From positions 1-64,000 of IMG/VR virus record IMGVR_UViG_3300009553_000023: a stretch of DNA of 64,000 bases. One strand, written 5' to 3'. The position numbers and the translations under genes were made by a program. Origin of the DNA: a virus. How positions within the stretch are numbered: position 1 is the first letter of the stretch; each line of letters starts with the position of its first letter. The notes under the pieces were generated by a model, which was not told where the DNA came from, did not search any database, and saw only the letters and a program-made list of their open reading frames with translations. Positions 5,896 to 28,710 of the stretch are shown one piece after another.

Positions 5896-7851
5896 ATGCC
5901 TGAATTTGATCTCAAAACGGATGTCGAGAACCGCCAGGACGGAGTTAGCGGTGAGACGCGTGTAGGCCCGGGAACTCCTGAAGCTGGCGAGGGCTACCAC
6001 GCAAAACTGCACAACGAAGTCAATGCGGCGGTTAATCAGGTTGGCGAAGAACTAGACTCGCTTGGCAGCGCAGCTACCAAGGCTGTAGGCGCGGCGGGCG
6101 AATCAGGGAAGGTACTCGCCTCCGATGACCCCGCGCTCGTCCGAAACGTCAAGAGTTTCGGCGCCAAAGGCAACGGTGCCACTGATGACGCAACGCCGAT
6201 CCGCGAAGCCATCAAAGCTGTCGCTGAAGCAGGCGGAGGGACGGTCTTCTTTCCTGCGGGGAACTACCGAATCGCTTCGAATGTCGCGCTCAAACCGAAG
6301 GTAGAAATAAGGGGTGCGGCGCGCGAGGCGACGCTGATCAAAGCCGACATCGGCGTCACGGTCGCGCCGTTTACGGCGACCGAAATTGAAGACACCGTCG
6401 TGCGCGACCTGGCGATTGACGGGGACGCCGTGGTCTTCGTCGGCAACACCTTTGGGATTAGCTGGACTCGGTGTAAACGTGTTCGCCTCACCAACGTTCG
6501 GATCAAAAACACGTACCACATCGGCGCCTACAGTACCGAATGCACGGACTACTCGATCGACAACTGCCTGCTTGACGAATGCGGGAAGACCTCTGCGACC
6601 CCGAACTGCATCCACGTGCTCAAGGGGACGCGCGCGAAGGTCGCCTTCAACACGGTGATCGATTGGGGCAACGGCGGGAACGGTCGTGCGGTCTACGTCT
6701 CCGAATCGCCAGAAACGCAGATCATCGGCAATAGCTTCGCCAATCCCGGTGGTGTCAACCACTCCCACATGATCTCGGTCGACGCCGCCTCGGACCGATG
6801 CGTCATCACCGACAACTTGCTGGAAAACAGCGGCTACCCCGGCGAAGGGCGCAAATGCGTCGGGATCAGCGTCATCAACTCCGATGACCCACTCATCGGC
6901 AACAACCGCATTAGGGAGCCCACGCAAGACAAAGGCTCCCTGGAGTGCATTCAGGTCGACGGAACGTCGAAGCGGGCGACGATCACGGGCAACCACTGCG
7001 AGTACGGCGATGACAATGGCATCACCGCGTGGGGCGCCGGCGAACACGTCGTCTCGGGGAACCTGATCGAGTTCGCCGCGCACCACGGGATCTCCGTGAA
7101 CTCGAACAACTGCACCGTCTCGGGCAATCTCGTCAAGAACTCTGGGCAGCACCCAGAAATCATCAACCCCTCGGGAATCGGGATTCTGAGCGGCGTAACC
7201 GGGACCGTCGTCACGGGCAATCGCTGCTTCGACGACCAGGCGACGAAGACCCAGCTCTGGGGCGTCATCGAGATCAGCACCGCCGACAAAAACACAATCC
7301 TCGGCAACGATCTGACGGGCAACAAAGAAGGTCCAGTTTCCTACGTCGGCGCCAACACGATCGTCGGCGCGAACCAAGGGATGACGCCTCGCAAGGGAGA
7401 GGTGGAGATCCACAATATTGGAGCGACCACTTTCGATGACGCTCGAGCCGCGGTGACGCCTCCACTCGGGACCCTGCTGTATCGAGAAGACACCGGCCAG
7501 CTTGCTGCCCGAACGGGGGCCAACATCTGGACGGCACTCGCGAAGGACAAGACCGCGACGCTGACCGATGGGGCCGGGGTGACCCCGAACTTCGCTAATG
7601 GCAACCACTTCATCCTGGTTGCTAAAGGCAATCGCACTATCAACAACGTGACCAATCGCCTGGCTGGTCAGACGATCACCATGAGCATCAAAAACGAAAC
7701 CGGTGGCGCGATGACAACCACCTGGAACGAAGCCTTCAAATTGGCTGGCGCCTGGGTCGACCCCGCCAATGGCAAACGGCGAACGATCACCTTCTACTGC
7801 TATGACGGCTCGAACTGGGAAGAGCTGAGCCGCTCGGCTGCGGATATCTAA
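5896..7851 (+). CDS. Tailspike with parallel beta-helix (pectate-lyase-like)
   Basis: A 651-residue protein with a pectate-lyase-3 type core. The motif SFGAKGNGATDDATPIREA is followed by AGGGTVFFPAGNYRI near residues 75-120, then many short repeats of the GN-x-I/V-x type that build a right-handed beta-helix to about residue 500. The C-terminal 130 residues look like a receptor-binding or trimerisation domain ending in aromatic strands. The N-terminal 90 residues probably attach it to the tail. Depolymerase activity on host surface glycan is inferred from the fold. Confidence 0.85.
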   Translation: MPEFDLKTDVENRQDGVSGETRVGPGTPEAGEGYHAKLHNEVNAAVNQVGEELDSLGSAATKAVGAAGESGKVLASDDPALVRNVKSFGAKGNGATDDATPIREAIKAVAEAGGGTVFFPAGNYRIASNVALKPKVEIRGAAREATLIKADIGVTVAPFTATEIEDTVVRDLAIDGDAVVFVGNTFGISWTRCKRVRLTNVRIKNTYHIGAYSTECTDYSIDNCLLDECGKTSATPNCIHVLKGTRAKVAFNTVIDWGNGGNGRAVYVSESPETQIIGNSFANPGGVNHSHMISVDAASDRCVITDNLLENSGYPGEGRKCVGISVINSDDPLIGNNRIREPTQDKGSLECIQVDGTSKRATITGNHCEYGDDNGITAWGAGEHVVSGNLIEFAAHHGISVNSNNCTVSGNLVKNSGQHPEIINPSGIGILSGVTGTVVTGNRCFDDQATKTQLWGVIEISTADKNTILGNDLTGNKEGPVSYVGANTIVGANQGMTPRKGEVEIHNIGATTFDDARAAVTPPLGTLLYREDTGQLAARTGANIWTALAKDKTATLTDGAGVTPNFANGNHFILVAKGNRTINNVTNRLAGQTITMSIKNETGGAMTTTWNEAFKLAGAWVDPANGKRRTITFYCYDGSNWEELSRSAADI

Positions 7852-15187: not shown

Positions 15188-16105
15188 TTGCGCTTCCCTG
15201 GCCTGAACAGGCAGGCGAAAAAGGCCGACCGGTCGTCTGGAGCGATGGTCGCCCTCTACCCGACCGCAGACGTGGCGCAAGCGCTGGCACAGTCAGGTGG
15301 CGAGTCGGCCGAGGAACTGCACCTAACGCTTGCCTTCCTTGGTGAAGCTGCCGATCTGCGCGACCCGGAGGCAGTGCGGAAGGTGGTCGAGGGCTTTGCG
15401 GCCTCATCTCCGCCGCTGGCCGGCGTGGTTTCGGGTATCGGCCATTTTACGGCTGGGCCGGAGCCGGTCACGTACGCCAGCGCCGATGTGCCAGGGCTGC
15501 CTCGATTCCGCGAGCGTCTCTGCGAAGCCCTATGTGGAGTCGGTGCTGAGCCATCGACGGACCACGGATTCAGCCCGCACATCACCCTCGCCTACGACCA
15601 GCGGGACCCGACGATCCCGAACCTCGCCCTGGCGTTCAACGAGGTCGCACTCGTCCTCGGCTTCGAGCGCTTTACGTTCCCACTGACAGGCAAGAACGCC
15701 GCAGACGGGGAGACGATCGCCACCAAGGGGGAAGGGGAGATGGAACTGACTGTGCCCCTCTGGAAGGACGACGCCAAGCGCATCGTCTACGGGGTCGTCA
15801 TGCAGCCACATGTCCCCGACTCCCAAGGCGACTGGCAGGAGCCCGAGGACATCGAAGCAGCGGCGCACCGCTATCTCGCCGAATCCCGCAAGCACGACGT
15901 GCAGCACGCTGAGGAGCAAGTCTCAGTAGTACCTGTAGAGAGCTTCGTCACGCCCACGGATATGGAGTACGCCGGGCGCCCGGTTCTCAAGGGCTCCTGG
16001 GTGATGGCGGTGCGGGTGGACGATGACGAAGTCTGGAGCCAGGTCGTCAAGCGCGAGCTCACCGGCTTCTCGATCGGCGGCACCGGCGAACGCCTGAACG
16101 CCTGA
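15188..16105 (+). CDS. 2H phosphoesterase fused to XkdF-like prohead protein
   Basis: 305 residues from a TTG two bases after the previous stop. The N-terminal 160 residues are a LigT-type 2H phosphoesterase: HLT at 45-47 and HIT at 131-133 are the two catalytic H-x-T motifs, 86 residues apart. From about 185 the sequence matches XkdF-type phage proteins (DDAKRIVYGVVMQPHVPDSQ, then LKGSWVMAVRV and LTGFSIGG), which act in prohead maturation. 2H enzymes open cyclic phosphodiesters and some phage examples destroy CBASS signals. Confidence 0.85.
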   Translation: MRFPGLNRQAKKADRSSGAMVALYPTADVAQALAQSGGESAEELHLTLAFLGEAADLRDPEAVRKVVEGFAASSPPLAGVVSGIGHFTAGPEPVTYASADVPGLPRFRERLCEALCGVGAEPSTDHGFSPHITLAYDQRDPTIPNLALAFNEVALVLGFERFTFPLTGKNAADGETIATKGEGEMELTVPLWKDDAKRIVYGVVMQPHVPDSQGDWQEPEDIEAAAHRYLAESRKHDVQHAEEQVSVVPVESFVTPTDMEYAGRPVLKGSWVMAVRVDDDEVWSQVVKRELTGFSIGGTGERLNA

Positions 16106-16148
16106 CTTCCTTTAACGCCTGACGGGCCCATGTGGGCCAGGAGGCCCC

Positions 16149-17111
16149 ATGCCCCAACTCACCAATCTCGACGTCGAGTGGGTGTCGCTCGTTGACCGCG
16201 CCGCGGTTCGCGATCCCATCGAGCAGTCGGAACCCAACCGCTTCCTGATCTGGAAGCGCGATCAGTCCCAAGGAGGACACCCAATGTCGAAACTCACAAA
16301 GGAGCTGCTCGACCAGCTCGGCGACGCGGTTGAGAAGGAAGACGCTCTCGCCAAGCTCGTCGAGAAGGCTGACAACCCCGAGGAGGTCGGAAGTGCCCTC
16401 CAGGGTGTCGCGCGCCTGCTCACCGCCCACAAGGCCGACCTGACCCCGGAGATCGTCGCGGAGGTCGCGAAGGCCGCTGGGCTGGAGTTGCCGACCCCTG
16501 AGGCTCCTGAGGCCTCGGTCTTCAAGGCCGAGAACGCCTCTGAGGTCGTCGAGGCCCTTAAGGGCGCCGATGTCCCCGAGAGCGTCGTCAAGGAGGTCGA
16601 GGAGGCACTGGCCAAGGCGGCCGAGAAGGCAGAGCTGGAGAAGGCCGACCTCCCACCGGCCGTCAAGGCCGCTCTGCAGAAGGCCGAGGATGACCGCAGG
16701 GAGTCCGCACGCAAGGCTGAGGAGGCCGAGCGGATCGCCAAGGAGGAGCGCGACACCCGCCTCAACAAGGAATTCATCGCCAAGGCTGAGGAGTTCAAAG
16801 GCCTGACCGTGAAGTCCGAGGAGTTCGGCCCTGTCCTCAAGTCCGCCAGCGAGAAGCTGGAGAAGGACGAATACGAGGCACTGGAGACCGTCCTGAAGGC
16901 TGCCGACGAGCAGATCGTCAGAGGCGAGCTCTTCAAGGAGGCCGGTGCGAGCGGCTCCCACACGCCCTCCGGTGCGTTCGAAGAGGCCACCAAGAAGGCG
17001 GAGGAGATCCGCAAGTCCGATTCCTCGCTCACTGCAGAGCAGGCGCTGGAGAAGGCCTTTGAGGCTGATCCCGCCCTCCAGGAGCGCTACCTCGCCGAGG
17101 TCCGCCGCTAA
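16149..17111 (+). CDS. Scaffolding-like protein
   Basis: A 320-residue protein dominated by Lys, Glu and Ala, with long predicted coiled coils (AEKAELEKADLPPAVKAALQ region). It begins with LTNLDVEWVSLVDRAAVRDP, a segment commonly found at the end of prohead-protease proteins. A second ATG at 16284 follows a strong AAGGAGGA site, so a shorter product may be the scaffold itself. Its position right before the decoration and capsid genes fits scaffolding. Confidence 0.75.
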   Translation: MPQLTNLDVEWVSLVDRAAVRDPIEQSEPNRFLIWKRDQSQGGHPMSKLTKELLDQLGDAVEKEDALAKLVEKADNPEEVGSALQGVARLLTAHKADLTPEIVAEVAKAAGLELPTPEAPEASVFKAENASEVVEALKGADVPESVVKEVEEALAKAAEKAELEKADLPPAVKAALQKAEDDRRESARKAEEAERIAKEERDTRLNKEFIAKAEEFKGLTVKSEEFGPVLKSASEKLEKDEYEALETVLKAADEQIVRGELFKEAGASGSHTPSGAFEEATKKAEEIRKSDSSLTAEQALEKAFEADPALQERYLAEVRR

Positions 17112-17138
17112 CCGCGGCAGGCAGAAGGAGAAACACTC

Positions 17139-17540
17139 ATGGCAACTCAGAAGATCGATGAGTTCGATTTCGAAGCCGCCCCTGCGGGCGAAGACCTTTC
17201 GACCAAGCAGTTCACGCTGGTGAAGCTGAACGAAAAAGGCGAACTGGTCAAAGCAGGTGGCGGTGATCTCGGTTTCGTCCTCCAGGACAAGCCCACCAAA
17301 GGCGTGACCGGCACCTTCGCGGTTGCTGGCCGCGTCAAGTGCGTCGCCGGCGCCGAAGTGAAACCTGGCGAACTGCTCTCGTCCGACGCGAACGGCCACG
17401 CCGTCCCGGCGACCGCAACCAAAGTCGCCGAAGAAAAAGTGAAAGCCCTCGGGACCAAGATCGTCGGCATCGCCCTCGAGGCGGCTGCCTCCGGTGAGGT
17501 CTTCGCCTTCCGGGCTGCCCCGACTGCTGGCCGCGCCTAA
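17139..17540 (+). CDS. Capsid decoration protein (DUF2190-like)
   Basis: 133 residues with repeated small beta strands: GFVLQDKPTKGVTGTFAV, then GRVKCVAGAEVKPGELLSSD and a C-terminal GIALEAAASGEVFAF. This pattern is typical of capsid stabilising proteins of the DUF2190 type that trimerise on the head. AGAAGGAG precedes the ATG. It lies between scaffold and capsid as expected. Confidence 0.8.
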   Translation: MATQKIDEFDFEAAPAGEDLSTKQFTLVKLNEKGELVKAGGGDLGFVLQDKPTKGVTGTFAVAGRVKCVAGAEVKPGELLSSDANGHAVPATATKVAEEKVKALGTKIVGIALEAAASGEVFAFRAAPTAGRA

Positions 17541-17571
17541 GCGCTCCAGCCACATCTAAGGAGAAAGCACA

Positions 17572-21520: not shown

Positions 21521-21943
21521 ATGGCAAAGAGCATCCTCCGAGAAGCGAAAGTTGAAGTCAACGGCGTCGACCTGAGCAACCACGTCCAGAAGGTCACGGT
21601 CACCAAGAAAGCCGACGAACAGGACGTAACGGCGATGGGTGCCAAAAGCAAGGAAACCCTGCTCGGCATCAGCGACGACATGATCCAGGTCACCTTCTAC
21701 CAGGACCATGCTGAAGGCTCCGTCAACCGGACGCTCAGCCCCCTGCAGGGCTCGAACACGCCTTTCAAAATCAAGGTGACCCACTCCTCGGGCTCGATCT
21801 CCAAAACGAACCCCGCCTGGGAAATCGAAGAATGCATCCTGCCGGAATTCACGCCCCTGGATGGCCAGGTCGGCTCGGCCGAGACCACGGACTGCAGCTT
21901 CAAGCCTGCGGGCGGCGAAGGCCTGAAAGAACTCACCTCGTGA
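21521..21943 (+). CDS. Major tail (tube) protein
   Basis: 140 residues, beta-sandwich-like: ILREAKVEVNGVDLSNHVQK, QVTFYQDHAEGSV, PFKIKVTHSSGSIS, and a final EECILPEFTPLDG. The pattern and position immediately before the tail-assembly chaperones identify it as the tube subunit. Confidence 0.78.
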   Translation: MAKSILREAKVEVNGVDLSNHVQKVTVTKKADEQDVTAMGAKSKETLLGISDDMIQVTFYQDHAEGSVNRTLSPLQGSNTPFKIKVTHSSGSISKTNPAWEIEECILPEFTPLDGQVGSAETTDCSFKPAGGEGLKELTS

Positions 21944-22311
21944 AACGACTCACGAAGGAGCAACTCAAGGCGCGCGCGAGCTTCAACTTCAAGGAGGTGG
22001 AGCTCGCACTGCCGGAGCTTGGTGAGAAGGACGCCGGGATTCTCTGTCGCACTCCGTCAATTAAGAACATCCACCAGCTCGAACGAGCATCCCAGGAGCG
22101 CAAGGACAAAGGCATCAGTAGCCCCGGTGTAATTGCAGGGCTGCTCGCCACCTACTGTGCGGACCCGGAGCTCAGTGAAGAGGAATGGCTGGAGGTCGTC
22201 AAGGACTGGCCGTCGACAACGATGGACAAGATCTATGAGACCTGCGCCAAGCTCGCCGGGACCACCGAAGAGGAGGCTCGCGCGCTAGCGACCGAGTTTC
22301 GCGGTTCCTGA
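21940..22311 (+). CDS. Tail assembly chaperone (first frame)
   Basis: 123 residues from a GTG overlapping the tube-protein stop (GTGA). Helical, with RASFNFKEVELALPELGEKD in the N-terminal part and a helical C-terminal half. It sits between tube and tape measure like lambda gpG. The frame ends in TCC-TGA at 22306-22311, where a +1 shift would continue into a second frame. Confidence 0.8.
   Translation: MKRLTKEQLKARASFNFKEVELALPELGEKDAGILCRTPSIKNIHQLERASQERKDKGISSPGVIAGLLATYCADPELSEEEWLEVVKDWPSTTMDKIYETCAKLAGTTEEEARALATEFRGS
22303..22311 (+). promoter_or_regulatory. Probable +1 frameshift site (GGT TCC TGA)
   Basis: The chaperone frame stops at TGA 22309-22311 after TCC. Skipping T22309 continues in the +1 frame as ETDIPFRFELALELG and on to 22453. 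That frame is open only from 22289, after a TAG at 22286, so any shift must occur in this short window. TCC-TGA is the shift codon pair of antizyme genes; TTT-C at 22297-22300 is an alternative. Confidence 0.55.
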
Positions 22312-22453
22312 GACAGATATTCCCTTTCGGTTTGAACTGGCCTTGGAGCTAGGGATGACCGTGGGGGAGCTTGAAGAGCGCATGGACTCCTACGAGTTCC
22401 GCGCTTGGAACCTGTTCATCAGGGAACGCGAAAAGCGTCGTGCTGAGGACTAG
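22310..22453 (+). CDS. Tail assembly chaperone extension (GT-type second frame)
   Basis: 47 further residues (ETDIPFRFELALELGMTVGE and so on) with the usual motif of the second-frame domain: a helix, then LGMTVGELEERMDSYEFRAW and a charged end. It lies in the +1 frame relative to the first chaperone. An internal ATG at 22355 with GGAG upstream would also allow a 32-residue separate product. This domain normally recruits tape measure to the tube subunits. Confidence 0.7.
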   Translation, partial: ETDIPFRFELALELGMTVGELEERMDSYEFRAWNLFIREREKRRAED

Positions 22454-22482
22454 GCGCCCCGTGTGACTAGGGCACGGGGCGC
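22454..22482. terminator. Ten-base-pair hairpin across a leftward stop codon
   Basis: GCGCCCCGTG (22454-22463) pairs perfectly with CACGGGGCGC (22473-22482) over a 9-base loop. The stop codon of the leftward gene (22467-22469) lies in the loop, and the rightward chaperone stop touches the left arm. A compact bidirectional terminator between convergent genes. Confidence 0.6.
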
Positions 22483-22766
22483 AGGTGCCGTTTGGGTGCT
22501 CGTTGCATCTCTACCGTGGCGCCTGCGGCTTCTAGTTCGTCTCGAAGTTGCTCAGCGATGCCTGGCTCAAGGTTGCGGCCGATTCGCGTAGGTGCGGCCT
22601 GGATAAGCCCATGGGCCTCGCTCAGGCGAAGCCCCATCCGCTCTCGGAGCACATGAATGACGGGGACCTTCTTCCCGTCGACCCCCATCAGTCGCACCTC
22701 TACATCGCCCTCGCCTACAGCGACCGGCGCCAGCGCTGGGCCTTTCCGTCGGCTCAGGAACCCCAC
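22467..22766 (-). CDS. Ribosomal protein L7/L12 C-terminal-domain-like protein (moron)
   Basis: 99 residues from a GTG, read leftward between tail chaperone and tape measure. Residues about 33-88 match the L7/L12 C-terminal domain: VPVIHVLRERMGLRLSEAHG, LIQAAP in the conserved turn, then IAEQLRDELEAAGATVEM. In ribosomes this domain binds translation factors. There is no L7/L12 N-terminal dimerisation domain; instead a short basic head (GFLSRRKG) and a beta segment precede it. A leftward gene inside tail genes is a likely moron. Confidence 0.75.
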   Translation of the reverse strand: MGFLSRRKGPALAPVAVGEGDVEVRLMGVDGKKVPVIHVLRERMGLRLSEAHGLIQAAPTRIGRNLEPGIAEQLRDELEAAGATVEMQRAPKRHLRPVP

Positions 22767-22842
22767 GCCTCATCCCTTCTGACCTCGGGAGTCACTTGAC
22801 CTTGCATCGTACCCTGCCCAATCAAGCCTCAGAGGCCTGCCC

Positions 22843-25800
22843 GTGAACACCGCGGCGGCAACCCTCCGGGTCATTGTCGAGGCCCAGACGGGGCCGGCGA
22901 GTGCGAACCTCGCGAAGTTCGACGGCCAGCTCGAGGCAACCGCCGCCAAGGCCGACGCCGCGATGGGCCGCGTTGCAGCATCGAGCGAGAAGGCTGCCAT
23001 CGCCTCGGGTCGGCACTGGGAGGCGACCGGTCGCTCGATCACCAAAGTTGGCAAGACCATCGGTCTAGTCGCTGCGCCGGTGGCCCTCTTTGGGGCCGCG
23101 GCGGTGAAGATGTCGATCGACTTCCACAAGGCGATGGAGATGATCTCCACGCAGGCCGGGGCGTCGCAGGGGGAAGTCCGCCAGCTTGAAAAAGCTGTCC
23201 TGGGCTTGTCGCGGCACTCGACCCAGGGGCCGACCGAACTCGCAAACGCCCTATTCCGACTCGAGGGGGCGGGGCTCCGGGGGAAGAAGGCGATGGACGC
23301 CCTACGGGCTTCGGCGAAGCTCGCCACGGTAGGCGGCGCCGATGTAGAAGACACCGCAAAGACCCTGTCGCAGGTCTGGTTCACCGATATCAAGGGAGCA
23401 GAAGACTTCAAGCGTGTCGTTGCAGAAGTCAACGCCACGGTCGGCGCCGGCGACCTTCGCCTTCCCCAACTCGTCGATGCGCTTGGCACCGGAGTGCTCG
23501 CCTCCGCCAAGCAGGTGGGCCTCTCGCTGAAAGACGTGAACGGTGCTCTTGCCGTGTTCGGTGATGAGACCAACAACGTTTCGGGGTGGTCTGCCCAGCT
23601 CGCGACGGCGTTTCATTTCTTCACCAACCCCACTGAAAAGGCGACGGGCGCCCTCGAACACATGGGGCTGACGGGCAACTCCCTCGCCCGGGACATGCAC
23701 AAGAGCCAAGGGCTGATAACTGCCCTCTCGGATCTTCGCGACCACCTGGAACGACTACCGGGTGGGCTAGAGGGAGTCCAGGCCGGGAAGACGCTTGGTG
23801 ACATCCTGCCGGGTGGGCGTGGGCGCGTGCTGCTGGTCCTGCTCAATCAGCTCGAACGCTACGAACAGAAGATGGTGCAGATCAAAGGCACCACCGACCA
23901 GTTCGGCAACGCTGTTCGCAAGACTTTCGCATTGCCTGGCGCGAAAATGGAACGCGCCTGGTCATCGATTCGAGCCGACATGATCGAAACCGGCGACGTG
24001 CTACTGCCCGCTGTGGTCCCGGGCTTCGAACACCTTGTCCATCTTGCCGATGTGGCGATGCACATATTCACCGCCATGCCTCCCGGTCTCCAGAGCGCAG
24101 CAGTGGAGGCCGGACTCATCGGTATTGGCCTCTCCGGGGCGTTGATCGTCACCGGCAAGCTGGTTGAGGCATTTGGAGTCCTGCGTGGCTCGATGATGGG
24201 TGTCGCTGCGGCGAACTTCGCCTCTTTCGTCAGCGGCGGAGTGGGGGACCTGAGGGCTGCCGGTGCCCTTGCGATGAGTGGCGAGCTGGGTGGCTTCTCG
24301 ATGGTCGGATCGGAGGCAGCCGGTGCCCTGATGGGAGGCCTCAAAAGAGCGCTGCCTCCCCTCGTTGCTGCAGCAGGGCTAGGGGACATCGTCCTAACAG
24401 CCACGCATGGCGATTGGGGCAAGGTCGGTGCTGAGGCTGGAGGAGCCGTTGTCGGTGGCATCGCAGGCGCCTTTGTAGGTAACCCGCTGTTGGGCGTCGG
24501 CTTGGGCGCGATCTTGGGTGGTCTTAGCGACGATCTCGCGAACTCACTCTTCGGAGGCTCGGACGACAAGCTAGCGAGCTTCCAGTCCGGGCTAAGCACC
24601 GATATGGATCGCTTGACAGGTGCCGCCAAGGTCCAGAAGGAAGCGTTTGAGGCCCTGGCAAATGCCGGCCACAAGGTGGCGGCAAGTCACCACAGGGTTC
24701 ATGCGGCCGAGTCTCGCCTCGCAGCGGCGAAACGCGAGCTGAAAAACACCGAAGAGGAGTTCCGGGGCACCCGGCACCTATCCATATCCCAAGCCATCCA
24801 GCTTGCGCGCAAGGAAGAGAATGTTCGGGAGGCAGCGCGTCAGGTAGCCGTCGCCAAGCGCGCTGAGGAAACCGTCGAAAAACTCCAAGGCGTCCGGCGC
24901 AAGATCACCAAGCGCCAGCTTGAACAGACCGTAGAAGTCGAGAAGGGCGTCGCGGAACGGCGAGCTAAACAGATCGGCCCCCTCAAGCACCTGCTCCAGT
25001 ACGAAGAAAACCAAGGTGCCTCGCGCAAGCGCATCATCGAAATCGGCAAGGTACTCCTCGCCGATATGGAAGCGCGCCAGAAGGCCTTGGCGAAGGTCAA
25101 CCAGGCCGAGAGTGAAGCAGCCACCAAGATCTCTCCCCAGTTCGCGAAGCATCTCGAACAGCTCAAGTCGGCCGAGAAACAGTTCTCCGATGCGATGGCG
25201 AGGTCGACGAGGAACTTCGAACGGACGCATTCCCTCATGCAGGAAAGCGATCGCCTGTTTGGGGCTAATCGCCAGGCGGTTGGGCGAACCACCCAAAGCT
25301 ACGAACACCTGAAGGGTGTCATGGGCCCGTTCCGGGCGGAATTCCATACGAAGCTCGGCTACGCGATGGCCGATGCCGAATCGTGGAGCAAAGCGACCAA
25401 ACTCGGCGTCTCGGCGGTTGAAACGCGCTTTCATAACTTCGCCTCGAAGCTCGGGATCGCCAACGTCCACTTCGACGTCAAAGACCAAGCGCCGCAGAAA
25501 CATCAGAAAGGCGGCTTCACGGTCCCCGGCAACTCGACCGGGGATCAGCATCCCTATCTAGTTCCCACCGGCTCGTTCGTCATGAACAGGGTCGCTTCGG
25601 CGGCGGCCGGATTGCAGAGCGGTGGGATGACGCCAGTGATGCTGGAGTCGAAAGAGACCGTCTTTTATCCGGATGCGGTCGCCCGCCATGGAGCCACGAA
25701 CCTCGCAGCCTGGAACGCCCGCTTTCCTCGATTCCAGAAAGCACAAACTGGCGGTTCCATCGGCCCCGAACCGGTGATCGTTGGTCCGACCGGGCAATTG

Positions 25801-28710
25801 CAATCTGTGGGCCAAGCGGCCGTGCATGCCGTCTATCAAGGCGCCCAGAAGTACTTGTCTCAGCATCAACCCACCGGGCTAGCACTCCCCGGTGGAGGCG
25901 GTTCGGTCGTCGAGCAAATTGGCCGCGTCCTCTTCGCCAACGGCTTCAACAAGATCGGCGCCGCTGGCATCATCGGCAACGCTTACCGAGAGTCAGGTTG
26001 GAATCCGGCAGCGGTAGGGACGGGCGGTGGCGGACTCTGGGGCTTTACATCTGGCGCCATCTCACTTGCCGCCCTCCAGGCGGCGGCTGGTCGGGCGGGT
26101 GTCCCCTGGACTGATGTTCCTTTCCAGACCGGGTTCATGCTCCGTCACGGCGGCATGGGTCTTCGGAACGTGCTCAACCACGCCGGAAGCGCGGGCGACG
26201 CCGCCCGAATCTTCATGGAACAGTGGGAGCGCCCAGGAATCCCGGCGCTGGGGGAGCGCGAAGCAGCCGCTCGCAAGGCCCTGGCGATGGGTTACCAACA
26301 GGGCGGCCAGGTGAAGCCGGTAGGCAAAGCCCTTCGACACGAATTCAACGAGACCATACGTCGCATTTGGCCGAGGGCCGCGCCCTACTACGGGCATTCT
26401 GCGATGCCCACAACTATCGTGCTAGACCTTCCCCGCGGAACTGCTGGCGAGGCTGTGCATACCCGGCATGGCAAGGCAGCGGTCATAGACCGCAATGCGG
26501 CGCTTGGAATTGTTTCGGGCCACGAACCGGGGAACCCGGGCGCGCCTGCAGGGAAGGGGACTCTCCTGCATGAGTGGAGCCATGTCTTTCAGGTTCCCGG
26601 CCTGAAGACTTGGGAAGCTGAGGGCGGGGCTGAGGACTTCAAGCTCTGGGCAGGGCCGCAGATCTTTGGCGATACGGGAGCCTTTGGCTCCCGTACTAGG
26701 CGCTATTTTGACGATGCCCAAAAAGTTGCCCATGACAAGGGTTGGCCTTGGGTAAAGTACGGTCAGTTTGGTAGGACCCCTCAAGGCCAAGTTCATCGGC
26801 AGGAGGGCGGGCTGGTTCTCTCCCTCCAAAAAGGTGGCCCGACCGACGCAGTCCACTGGGCTATGCGTCATCTCGGCAGCACCGACCATTGGGGCTACCC
26901 GGGGGAGTGGTGCGGCGCGTTCCTAGCTGCGGACATGGAAGCGGTAGGACTCACTCCTCCATCCGGCTATCCCTCGGCGATCAATTGGGCCTCCTACGGC
27001 TCCCCGCTGGGCCGCTCACACATCCAGGCCGGGGCGATCCTGGATTACGGCAGCGCTCACGTGGCGATGGCAATCAGCTCCAGCGAGCAGATTCAGGGCA
27101 ACAACAGCGAAGGAAAGGTCGGCACCTCCGGGATCGGCGGGGTCATCGGGGGTTCAAAACTGACGGCGGTCCGCTGGCCACCCTACGCCACGGGCCCTGG
27201 TGCTGGCTCCTCTCTAACCGAAAAAGTCCCCGGCATCTTCCATGGCGCCCACACGAAAGCCCTTTCGCTCAGCGGCGCGATCCCCAAGACGATCGGGGGC
27301 GTCAACCGCGAGATCGCCCGCCGGGAGAAAGAACTTCACATCTACCGTCGCGCCGCACAACTCGCAGGCGCCAAAGGAATGCCCAAGACCCAGCAGGCGA
27401 TTCAGCACAACGTCACGGCGCTCGAAAAGCGGGTGAGCGAACTGCGCCGTGCGCTCCACAAGCTACGCCAGGAGGTCGCCAAGAAACGCATTTCAAAGCA
27501 CCTGGGGCGTTCCCTCGGAACCGTCACTGGCTACGAGAAGCTCATCGAAGGCAAGGCTCGCACCTACAACCAGCTCAACGAATTCGCCAGCCAGACCGTG
27601 GACCTTGAGCCCCAGGAAGCCATCCTCTCAGCTGGGGCTACCGAAGCTCAGCGGGAGGCCGCCGAAAAGCTCTACGTCGCGAACCTGACCAGCTACATCG
27701 ACTCTCAGGAGCGTCCTGCGTATCAGCGTGTCCTCGAAGCGGAGGCCGATTGGCGCAACACAATCCTGCGCGCCGAGATCTTCGGGTTTGGCAAGAACAA
27801 ACCATCGGCCGCACACCTCGAGCATCGCTGGGAAAAGGGCATTCGCGGCGTCGATAGCGACATCGACGCCATCAACGCCTTCACCAAAAAGGTCTCCGAC
27901 GAGAAGGGGCAGTGGAAGTCAGCCCACCCTAAAGAAGACTTTCCAAAATGGCTCAAAGCGGCTATCAAAAAAGACGAAGCCGAACGGGAACGGCTCCCAG
28001 TCCTCCGATTCCGCGATCGTGAACTGCGCAAAGTCCTCGGCGAAGCGCGGGGGGAGTTCTACCCAGGCGTCAAAGATCCGATTCAACCCCCGACGACCCC
28101 GCTTGCTGGAACCGGGACCTTTGAGTCTGACCTGGAAGACGTACAGGGCGTCCATTGGCCCGACCAGCATGCCCTCGGTGCCTCAATTCCGGGGATGCGC
28201 ATCAAGGGGCATTTCGGCGGGGCGATCTGGGAGACGCAGGGAGCAATCGAAGAACTAGGGCTGAAGATCCAACAGGCCAGCGCGAACATCGGCGGGAGCG
28301 GTGGAGCCGGGACTGACGATTCCGAAGAAATAGCGCTCCTCAAGGAAGAACTGCTCCATGAACGTATGGGGAAGGGGCTTCGGCATATCGAGGAAGTCGT
28401 AAGCGGCGAAACTCCGAAGCCGAGCCAACTCGGCCTGCCCTATGCCGGCGCCTATGCATCTGGTGGTGTGGTTGGAGCACTCGTGGGGGAGAAGGGACCT
28501 GAGATCGCGGCCTTCCCAACGGGCACGCGAATCCACTCCGCGCGCGAGAGCGCCTCGATCCTCAAGCCCAACGTGAACGTCTACTTCTACGAGGGTGAGG
28601 GCATCGCGCAGGTGGAAGTTGACGGCCAACAGGTCGAAGCAATCGTCAACCGCATGGACCGGCGTTCCGCGCGTGGTGCGGCTCGCGGGATGGCAAGGGC
28701 AGGTTTCTAA
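22843..28710 (+). CDS. Tape measure protein with lysozyme, metalloprotease-like and CHAP-like modules
   Basis: 1955 residues from a GTG. The N-terminal 330 residues carry the PhageMin_Tail pattern (ISTQAGASQGEVRQLE, then LSQVWFTDIKG); Ala/Gly-rich membrane-like segments occupy about 420-570, and coiled coil follows to about 850. At about 1020-1145 lies a phage-tail-lysozyme domain (GIIGNAYRESGWNP). H1243-E-W-S-H1247 with E/D residues after it is an HExxH zinc-protease motif. Near 1340-1430 a CHAP-like domain has C1357 (GEWCGAFL) and H1406 (SAHVAMA). The protein sets tail length and should open the wall during DNA entry. Confidence 0.9.
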   Translation: MNTAAATLRVIVEAQTGPASANLAKFDGQLEATAAKADAAMGRVAASSEKAAIASGRHWEATGRSITKVGKTIGLVAAPVALFGAAAVKMSIDFHKAMEMISTQAGASQGEVRQLEKAVLGLSRHSTQGPTELANALFRLEGAGLRGKKAMDALRASAKLATVGGADVEDTAKTLSQVWFTDIKGAEDFKRVVAEVNATVGAGDLRLPQLVDALGTGVLASAKQVGLSLKDVNGALAVFGDETNNVSGWSAQLATAFHFFTNPTEKATGALEHMGLTGNSLARDMHKSQGLITALSDLRDHLERLPGGLEGVQAGKTLGDILPGGRGRVLLVLLNQLERYEQKMVQIKGTTDQFGNAVRKTFALPGAKMERAWSSIRADMIETGDVLLPAVVPGFEHLVHLADVAMHIFTAMPPGLQSAAVEAGLIGIGLSGALIVTGKLVEAFGVLRGSMMGVAAANFASFVSGGVGDLRAAGALAMSGELGGFSMVGSEAAGALMGGLKRALPPLVAAAGLGDIVLTATHGDWGKVGAEAGGAVVGGIAGAFVGNPLLGVGLGAILGGLSDDLANSLFGGSDDKLASFQSGLSTDMDRLTGAAKVQKEAFEALANAGHKVAASHHRVHAAESRLAAAKRELKNTEEEFRGTRHLSISQAIQLARKEENVREAARQVAVAKRAEETVEKLQGVRRKITKRQLEQTVEVEKGVAERRAKQIGPLKHLLQYEENQGASRKRIIEIGKVLLADMEARQKALAKVNQAESEAATKISPQFAKHLEQLKSAEKQFSDAMARSTRNFERTHSLMQESDRLFGANRQAVGRTTQSYEHLKGVMGPFRAEFHTKLGYAMADAESWSKATKLGVSAVETRFHNFASKLGIANVHFDVKDQAPQKHQKGGFTVPGNSTGDQHPYLVPTGSFVMNRVASAAAGLQSGGMTPVMLESKETVFYPDAVARHGATNLAAWNARFPRFQKAQTGGSIGPEPVIVGPTGQLQSVGQAAVHAVYQGAQKYLSQHQPTGLALPGGGGSVVEQIGRVLFANGFNKIGAAGIIGNAYRESGWNPAAVGTGGGGLWGFTSGAISLAALQAAAGRAGVPWTDVPFQTGFMLRHGGMGLRNVLNHAGSAGDAARIFMEQWERPGIPALGEREAAARKALAMGYQQGGQVKPVGKALRHEFNETIRRIWPRAAPYYGHSAMPTTIVLDLPRGTAGEAVHTRHGKAAVIDRNAALGIVSGHEPGNPGAPAGKGTLLHEWSHVFQVPGLKTWEAEGGAEDFKLWAGPQIFGDTGAFGSRTRRYFDDAQKVAHDKGWPWVKYGQFGRTPQGQVHRQEGGLVLSLQKGGPTDAVHWAMRHLGSTDHWGYPGEWCGAFLAADMEAVGLTPPSGYPSAINWASYGSPLGRSHIQAGAILDYGSAHVAMAISSSEQIQGNNSEGKVGTSGIGGVIGGSKLTAVRWPPYATGPGAGSSLTEKVPGIFHGAHTKALSLSGAIPKTIGGVNREIARREKELHIYRRAAQLAGAKGMPKTQQAIQHNVTALEKRVSELRRALHKLRQEVAKKRISKHLGRSLGTVTGYEKLIEGKARTYNQLNEFASQTVDLEPQEAILSAGATEAQREAAEKLYVANLTSYIDSQERPAYQRVLEAEADWRNTILRAEIFGFGKNKPSAAHLEHRWEKGIRGVDSDIDAINAFTKKVSDEKGQWKSAHPKEDFPKWLKAAIKKDEAERERLPVLRFRDRELRKVLGEARGEFYPGVKDPIQPPTTPLAGTGTFESDLEDVQGVHWPDQHALGASIPGMRIKGHFGGAIWETQGAIEELGLKIQQASANIGGSGGAGTDDSEEIALLKEELLHERMGKGLRHIEEVVSGETPKPSQLGLPYAGAYASGGVVGALVGEKGPEIAAFPTGTRIHSARESASILKPNVNVYFYEGEGIAQVEVDGQQVEAIVNRMDRRSARGAARGMARAGF

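What the first reader, a model, noticed from the sequence alone, without database searches (positions are those of the whole stretch)
22467..22766. Phage-borne L7/L12 C-terminal domain
L7/L12 C-terminal domains recruit elongation factors. A free 99-residue version on a leftward moron within tail genes could compete for translation factors or host GTPases, perhaps to slow host or superinfecting-phage translation.
Basis: partly seen in the sequence, partly recalled or inferred. Interest (0 to 1): 0.62.

Follow-up and report, generated by a model that had tools for sequence, protein, structure and literature searches.

The report
Phage-carried free ribosome-stalk domain
A tailed phage carries, in a side slot among its tail genes, a small gene for a stand-alone copy of the ribosome-stalk domain that normally recruits translation factors; phages were already known to carry such domains, so this is a new example of a known kind whose target is untested.

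Summary
ORF 22467-22766 (minus strand, GTG start, 99 aa) is a free-standing L7/L12 C-terminal domain: Pfam PF00542 E=1.2e-14, predicted fold matching 1ctf (rmsd 0.8). The N-terminal dimerisation/uL10-binding part is absent. The gene lies leftward between the tail-assembly chaperone pair and the tape measure gene. Two related uncultivated phages carry a homologue in the same slot and orientation (about 60% and 38% identity); 10 more distant records lack PF00542, so 3 of 13 have it. It evolves faster than its neighbours but dN<dS. The factor-binding face is only partly kept: V66 and R73 equivalents in 3 of 3, but the lysines found in 9 of 9 cellular bL12 (K70, K84) in 0 of 3, with an arginine at G79 in 3 of 3. 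Best reading: an untethered, modified mimic of the stalk tip that competes for a stalk client; identity is secure, mechanism inferred. Phage bL12 domains, including a free-standing 98-aa one, were reported in 2019 (PMC6375957). No sign of lysogeny was found. New member of a known kind.

The parts
22467..22766 (-). Gene for the free-standing L7/L12 C-terminal-domain protein (99 aa, GTG start)
22503..22700 (-). PF00542 domain proper
   Evidence: six-frame hit coordinates
22454..22482 (.). 11-bp GC-rich hairpin with the L12 stop codon in its loop, between the convergent chaperone T frame and the L12 gene; possible bidirectional terminator, no U-tract
   Evidence: plus strand -35.7 kcal/mol for the 71-nt stretch, z -2.43; minus strand z -2.33; the terminator scan did not call it
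22767..22842 (-). Divergent intergenic region with the ribosome-binding site of the L12 gene; TACGATGCAAG (22801-22811, minus strand) is shared exactly with L002 and absent from L004
   Evidence: no sigma-70-like promoter found
21940..22311 (+). Tail assembly chaperone, G-like frame (named by position; no family hit)
   Evidence: homologues in L002, L004, L027
22307..22453 (+). T-like frame of the chaperone pair, +1 relative to the G frame; convergent with the L12 gene, stops 13 nt apart
22843..28710 (+). Tape measure protein gene, divergent from the L12 gene
   Evidence: phrog_1533, E=9.6e-30
21521..21943 (+). Major tail protein gene
   Evidence: phrog_4574, E=2.2e-20

Best explanation
The gene makes a small soluble copy of the stalk-tip domain of ribosomal protein bL12 that lacks the part anchoring it to uL10, so it cannot take the normal stalk position. 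It most likely binds one or more proteins that dock on the host stalk tip, through the helix 4 - helix 5 face, and competes with or diverts them during infection. Shown: fold, missing tether, slot, orientation, conservation in three phages, partial remodelling of the binding face. Inferred: expression from its own leftward unit, the binding, the competition and its benefit. The client could be a translational GTPase, a release factor or a host effector that docks on the stalk; the loss of K70/K84 and the fixed arginine at position 79 suggest a narrowed or altered client set.
For: Domain and fold. The bL12 equivalog TIGR00855 matches only from model position 54 on, 47.8 bits against a cut-off of 84.4, so the N-terminal part is absent. 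Same slot and orientation in L002 and L004, both PF00542 hits above cut-off; L004 is predicted to the same element order. dN 0.37 against dS 0.96 for window-L002 (NG86). V66 and R73 equivalents are kept in 3 of 3, R79 is in 3 of 3, net charge of the 65-88 stretch is +2/+2/+3. The bL12 CTD binds IF2, EF-Tu, EF-G and RF3 through a conserved positively charged site in helices 4 and 5 (PMC6753160, passages); a second bL12 CTD contacts RF1 (PMC6076264, passages).
Against: K70 and K84 equivalents are lysine in 9 of 9 cellular domains but 0 of 3 here (H/E/R and H/H/V), and I69 is T in L004: full factor binding is doubtful. The roles of these single residues are recalled, not read. Fast divergence (L12 55% and 37% identity against major tail protein 87% and 84%) could also mean weak constraint. 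Expression, binding partner and host are unknown.
Confidence: 0.45

Rival explanations
1. It binds the ordinary translational GTPases much as host bL12 does and slows or biases host translation.
For: Fold identical within model accuracy; V66, I69 (2 of 3) and R73 equivalents and net positive charge kept.
Against: Both lysines seen in 9 of 9 cellular domains are lost in 3 of 3. A domain without tether must compete with several copies per ribosome of the host protein.
Confidence: 0.22
2. Counter-defence decoy: it captures a host effector that docks on the stalk tip, such as the CARF-RelE nuclease Cami1 of type III CRISPR.
For: A stalk-captured defence nuclease exists (title of Mogila et al. 2023 seen in the reference list of PMC12830947; a Cami1-70S entry with bL12, 8phj, is among the fold hits). 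Fast divergence, variable slot and altered surface would fit a host-conflict gene.
Against: No direct evidence; host unknown; Cami1 contact residues were not examined; Cami1 is one effector and its spread in the host group is unknown.
Confidence: 0.1
3. The domain has been recruited as a general protein-binding module unrelated to translation, for instance a ClpS-like adaptor or a tail-assembly helper.
For: ClpS is the next fold in the search (best E 9.0e-3, TM 0.46 by query); it lies next to chaperone and tape measure genes; an L12 domain is also embedded in RIIB proteins of Schitoviridae phages.
Against: Sequence is clearly L12, not ClpS; it points against the tail operon; 10 of 13 related records lack PF00542.
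Confidence: 0.2
4. It is a captured host fragment with little or no function, on its way out.
For: Faster change than its neighbours.
Against: Intact ORF with a ribosome-binding site in three phages, dN<dS, domain score above cut-off in the most diverged copy.
Confidence: 0.1

Closest known systems
Phage-encoded bL12-domain proteins (Mizuno et al. 2019, PMC6375957), especially the 98-aa protein of Ralstonia phage RSB3
   Same: Small phage proteins in which the bL12 C-terminal domain spans most of the length; 30-40% identity to cellular homologues; varied genomic context (passages read)
   Different: That paper says the phage domains keep residues for uL11, EF-G and EF-Tu binding; here two lysines present in all nine cellular domains compared are gone in all three homologues. 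Slot and phage lineage differ; no sequence match to any of 50,697 phage records at E<=0.01.
Cellular ribosomal protein bL12 (rplL)
   Same: C-terminal domain sequence and fold
   Different: No N-terminal dimerisation/uL10-binding domain; binding-face lysines lost
L12 domain embedded in RIIB proteins of Schitoviridae (e.g. Pectobacterium phage phiA41)
   Same: Phage-borne L12 C-terminal domain; weak match to the L004 homologue (E=4e-3)
   Different: Part of a 702-aa protein beside an RIIA gene, not a separate gene
ClpS adaptor
   Same: Related fold
   Different: Sequence similarity is to L12 only; ClpS residues were not tested

Membership tests
PF00542 L7/L12 C-terminal domain | Profile score above the curated cut-off | tested here: met
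   54.8 bits against 25.9; homologues 44.7 and 47.7 bits
PF00542 L7/L12 C-terminal domain | beta-alpha-alpha-beta-alpha-beta fold of 1ctf | tested here: met
Ribosomal protein bL12 (functional stalk protein) | N-terminal dimerisation and uL10-binding domain plus hinge | tested here: not met
   TIGR00855 matched only at 54-124 of 125, 47.8 bits against 84.4; only about 20 residues precede the domain
Ribosomal protein bL12 (functional stalk protein) | Helix 4/5 residues conserved in cellular bL12 | tested here: inconclusive
   V66 and R73 kept 3 of 3, I69 2 of 3, K70 and K84 0 of 3; residue roles recalled
Phage-encoded bL12-domain proteins (Mizuno et al. 2019) | bL12 domain protein encoded in a phage genome | tested here: met
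   65,447-base virus record with terminase, portal, capsid and tape measure genes
Phage-encoded bL12-domain proteins (Mizuno et al. [quoted passage not shown]
   needs expression and ribosome isolation
ClpS adaptors | ClpS family profile match | tested here: not met
   The only Pfam hit at E<=1 is PF00542

The most novel reading that the evidence does not exclude
The gene is a rapidly diverging counter-defence decoy: a free stalk tip with a re-cut surface that soaks up host immune effectors which must dock on the bL12 stalk (as the CARF-RelE nuclease Cami1 does), while sparing the phage's own need for EF-G and EF-Tu because the lysines thought to be used for those factors have been lost.
Probability: 0.08. 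Interest if true: 0.8.

Novelty: new member of a known kind. Interest (0 to 1): 0.36.

Why it matters
Phage bL12 domains have been in print since 2019 (PMC6375957) and none of the papers listed in my searches settles their function. This clade gives a minimal form: domain only, its own gene, same slot in three phages, with a consistently altered binding face. That makes a direct test possible of whether such domains act on translation factors or on something else docking on the stalk.

Tried and rejected
Full ribosomal bL12: rejected, N-terminal part absent. Host contamination or chance ORF: rejected (phage genes all round; syntenic homologues). Wider spread: tblastn of the window protein against 50,697 phage records found nothing at E<=0.01; genome-contig scans with the protein and with the major tail protein alignment found no relative, so no host or prophage was identified; viral-contig scans with the protein, A1, A2, A4 and A3 returned only the L002 and L004 contigs plus, for A2, L006; a scan with the window chaperone found none. 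A scan with the major capsid protein gave 11 loci, two on the known contigs and 9 on other records; none of the 9 has PF00542; a repeat with A3 also gave nothing but has no internal positive control. In plasmid-labelled records the 16 hits look like ordinary rplL. Many phage-labelled hits of E. coli bL12 look like bacterial DNA. Single acquisition against several: not resolved; the tree of the domain groups window with L002 (bootstrap 99) but places L004 elsewhere at weak support (69), while synteny and the shared LRL and APT motifs favour one origin. Promoter: no sigma-70-like site. dN/dS with L004 is near saturation and the YN00 method failed for 8 of 9 pairs. Papers with residue-level binding data (PMC5939111, PMC1356325) are not held, so the roles of V66, I69, K70, R73, K84 are recalled. 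Paper searches listed only PMC6375957 as a study of phage bL12 as far as titles and abstracts show; they cover the open-licence library only. An idea that the protein tunes the +1 frame change in the neighbouring chaperone pair by competing for release factors was dropped as untested: the UGA directly at the overlap is present in window and L002 but not in L004.

Full report
What is there. The ORF at 22467-22766 on the minus strand encodes 99 residues from a GTG start. Residues 23-88 match PF00542 over 66 of 67 positions (E=1.2e-14). The whole-protein bL12 model TIGR00855 matches only positions 54-124 and stays below its cut-off (47.8 against 84.4 bits). So this is the C-terminal domain alone, with about 20 residues before it and about 11 after it. 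The predicted structure (mean pLDDT 76.7) has the expected element order. All 10 PDB matches with E<=0.001 are L7/L12, led by the E. coli domain 1ctf with rmsd 0.8 A. ClpS proteins follow at E about 0.01 and worse.

Surroundings. The window lies in a virus record of 65,447 bases. PHROGs hits give terminase, portal, major capsid, major tail and tape measure genes. The L12 gene points left, between a rightward chaperone pair (21940-22311 and a +1 frame 22307-22453) and the rightward tape measure gene at 22843. The chaperone genes are named by position and by their overlapping frames; the G-like one has no family hit. The L12 stop codon and that of the T frame are 13 nt apart, and an 11-bp hairpin spans the junction. 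The terminator scan did not report it and there is no U-tract, so a terminator role is a guess. In 50 ORFs searched against PHROGs, 49 of them among the 96 of the mechanical list, no integrase or repressor appeared. The 1,447 bases of the record outside the window were searched only for PF00542.

Relatives. L002 (IMGVR_UViG_3300025941_001121) and L004 (IMGVR_UViG_3300044694_000148) carry the gene in the same slot and orientation. Identity to the window protein is 60% over the best segment of 85 residues and 38% over 80 columns, or 54/98 and 34/93 aligned residues. Both exceed the Pfam cut-off. The L004 protein, which has a two-residue insertion after helix 4, is predicted with the same element order. 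The major tail proteins of the same phages are 87% and 84% identical and the major capsid proteins 84% and 83%, so the L12 gene changes much faster than the virion genes. The G-like chaperone next to it is also fast (76% and 52%). For window against L002 dN is 0.37 and dS 0.96, so the protein is still under purifying selection, though weaker than for the tail protein (0.10 and 0.58). Of 13 records examined for PF00542 (window, L002 and L004 contigs, L006, and 9 capsid relatives) 3 have it. Several of the 10 without are short fragments. L026, L027 and L029 are identical over 560 bases that begin at the end of the G-like frame and cover the slot; there, in L027, the same gap holds another leftward open frame whose start reads like a membrane segment. 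In L006 I see no leftward gene in the corresponding place. The slot thus looks like a place for exchangeable leftward accessory genes; this is an inference from few genomes.

The binding face. Against nine cellular bL12 domains (E. coli; four from plasmid-labelled records and four from phage-labelled records that look like bacterial DNA) the three phage proteins keep V66 and R73 in 3 of 3 and I69 in 2 of 3. They have no lysine at 70 or 84 (0 of 3, against 9 of 9 cellular at each). They share an arginine at position 79, where 8 of 9 cellular domains have glycine. Net charge of the stretch 65-88 is +2, +2 and +3, within the cellular range of +1 to +3. The panel has no actinobacterial and no host-matched member, since the host is unknown; Listeria and Enterococcus rows are nearly identical. 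Three other phage domains compared in the same call keep K70 in 3 of 3 and K84 in 2 of 3. The factor-binding site is described as conserved, positively charged and in helices 4 and 5 (PMC6753160, passages); which single residues matter is recalled. So the face is modified in a consistent way rather than preserved or eroded at random; with three sequences this is a lead, not a proof.

How it may work. Without the N-terminal domain the protein cannot be held by uL10 (established knowledge of bL12; passages). The simplest working model is a soluble stalk-tip mimic that engages a stalk client through helices 4 and 5 and competes with the host stalk. Whether the client is a GTPase, a release factor (bL12 also contacts RF1 and RF3: PMC6076264, passages) or a defence effector that docks on the stalk (Mogila et al. 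2023, seen only as a title in a reference list) is open. The missing lysines argue against simple full-strength binding of EF-G and EF-Tu.

What is known. Mizuno et al. 2019 (PMC6375957, passages read) reported bL12 domains in seven cultivated phages, including a 98-aa protein of Ralstonia phage RSB3 that the domain spans, and in uncultivated phages. They found peptides of one phage bL12 in ribosome fractions but could not purify ribosomes by its tag, and suggested that viral bL12 domains offer interfaces for virus-specific factors. The present gene is therefore a new member of a known kind, from a lineage with no match to this protein among 50,697 phage records.

Verdict. Observation confirmed; interpretation partly supported; ordinary in kind, with a mildly interesting twist in its fixed slot and altered binding face.

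Noticed in passing
window 21940-22453: The chaperone pair before the tape measure gene lies in two overlapping frames, the second +1 to the first; the join GGT TCC TGA is shared with L002, while L004 has TCC GGA without a stop at once. Looks like a programmed frameshift of +1 (or -2).
   Followed up: partly
L027:15776-16074 (minus); slot identical over 560 bases in L026 and L029: In relatives with 68% identical capsid protein the slot between chaperone pair and tape measure holds a different leftward open frame that begins with a membrane-like segment: a likely exchangeable accessory slot.
   Followed up: partly
L012 (Pectobacterium phage phiA41) 2501-2710: An L12 C-terminal domain is embedded in the RIIB protein of Schitoviridae phages.
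   Followed up: no
L011 (Streptomyces phage Bmoc gp3) and L013 (Pseudomonas phage UNO-G1W1): Hypothetical proteins with an L12-like helix 4/5 motif (GLGLKESK).
   Followed up: no
window 5896-7851: A tail-spike-like protein is encoded upstream of the terminase gene, far from the tail module.
   Followed up: no
window 16059-17555: A 498-aa leftward frame between protease and capsid genes with no Pfam or PHROGs hit.
   Followed up: no
phages collection, e.g. CAKLQH020000005.1: Several phage-labelled records carry rplJ-rplL or bare rplL and look like bacterial contamination.
   Followed up: no
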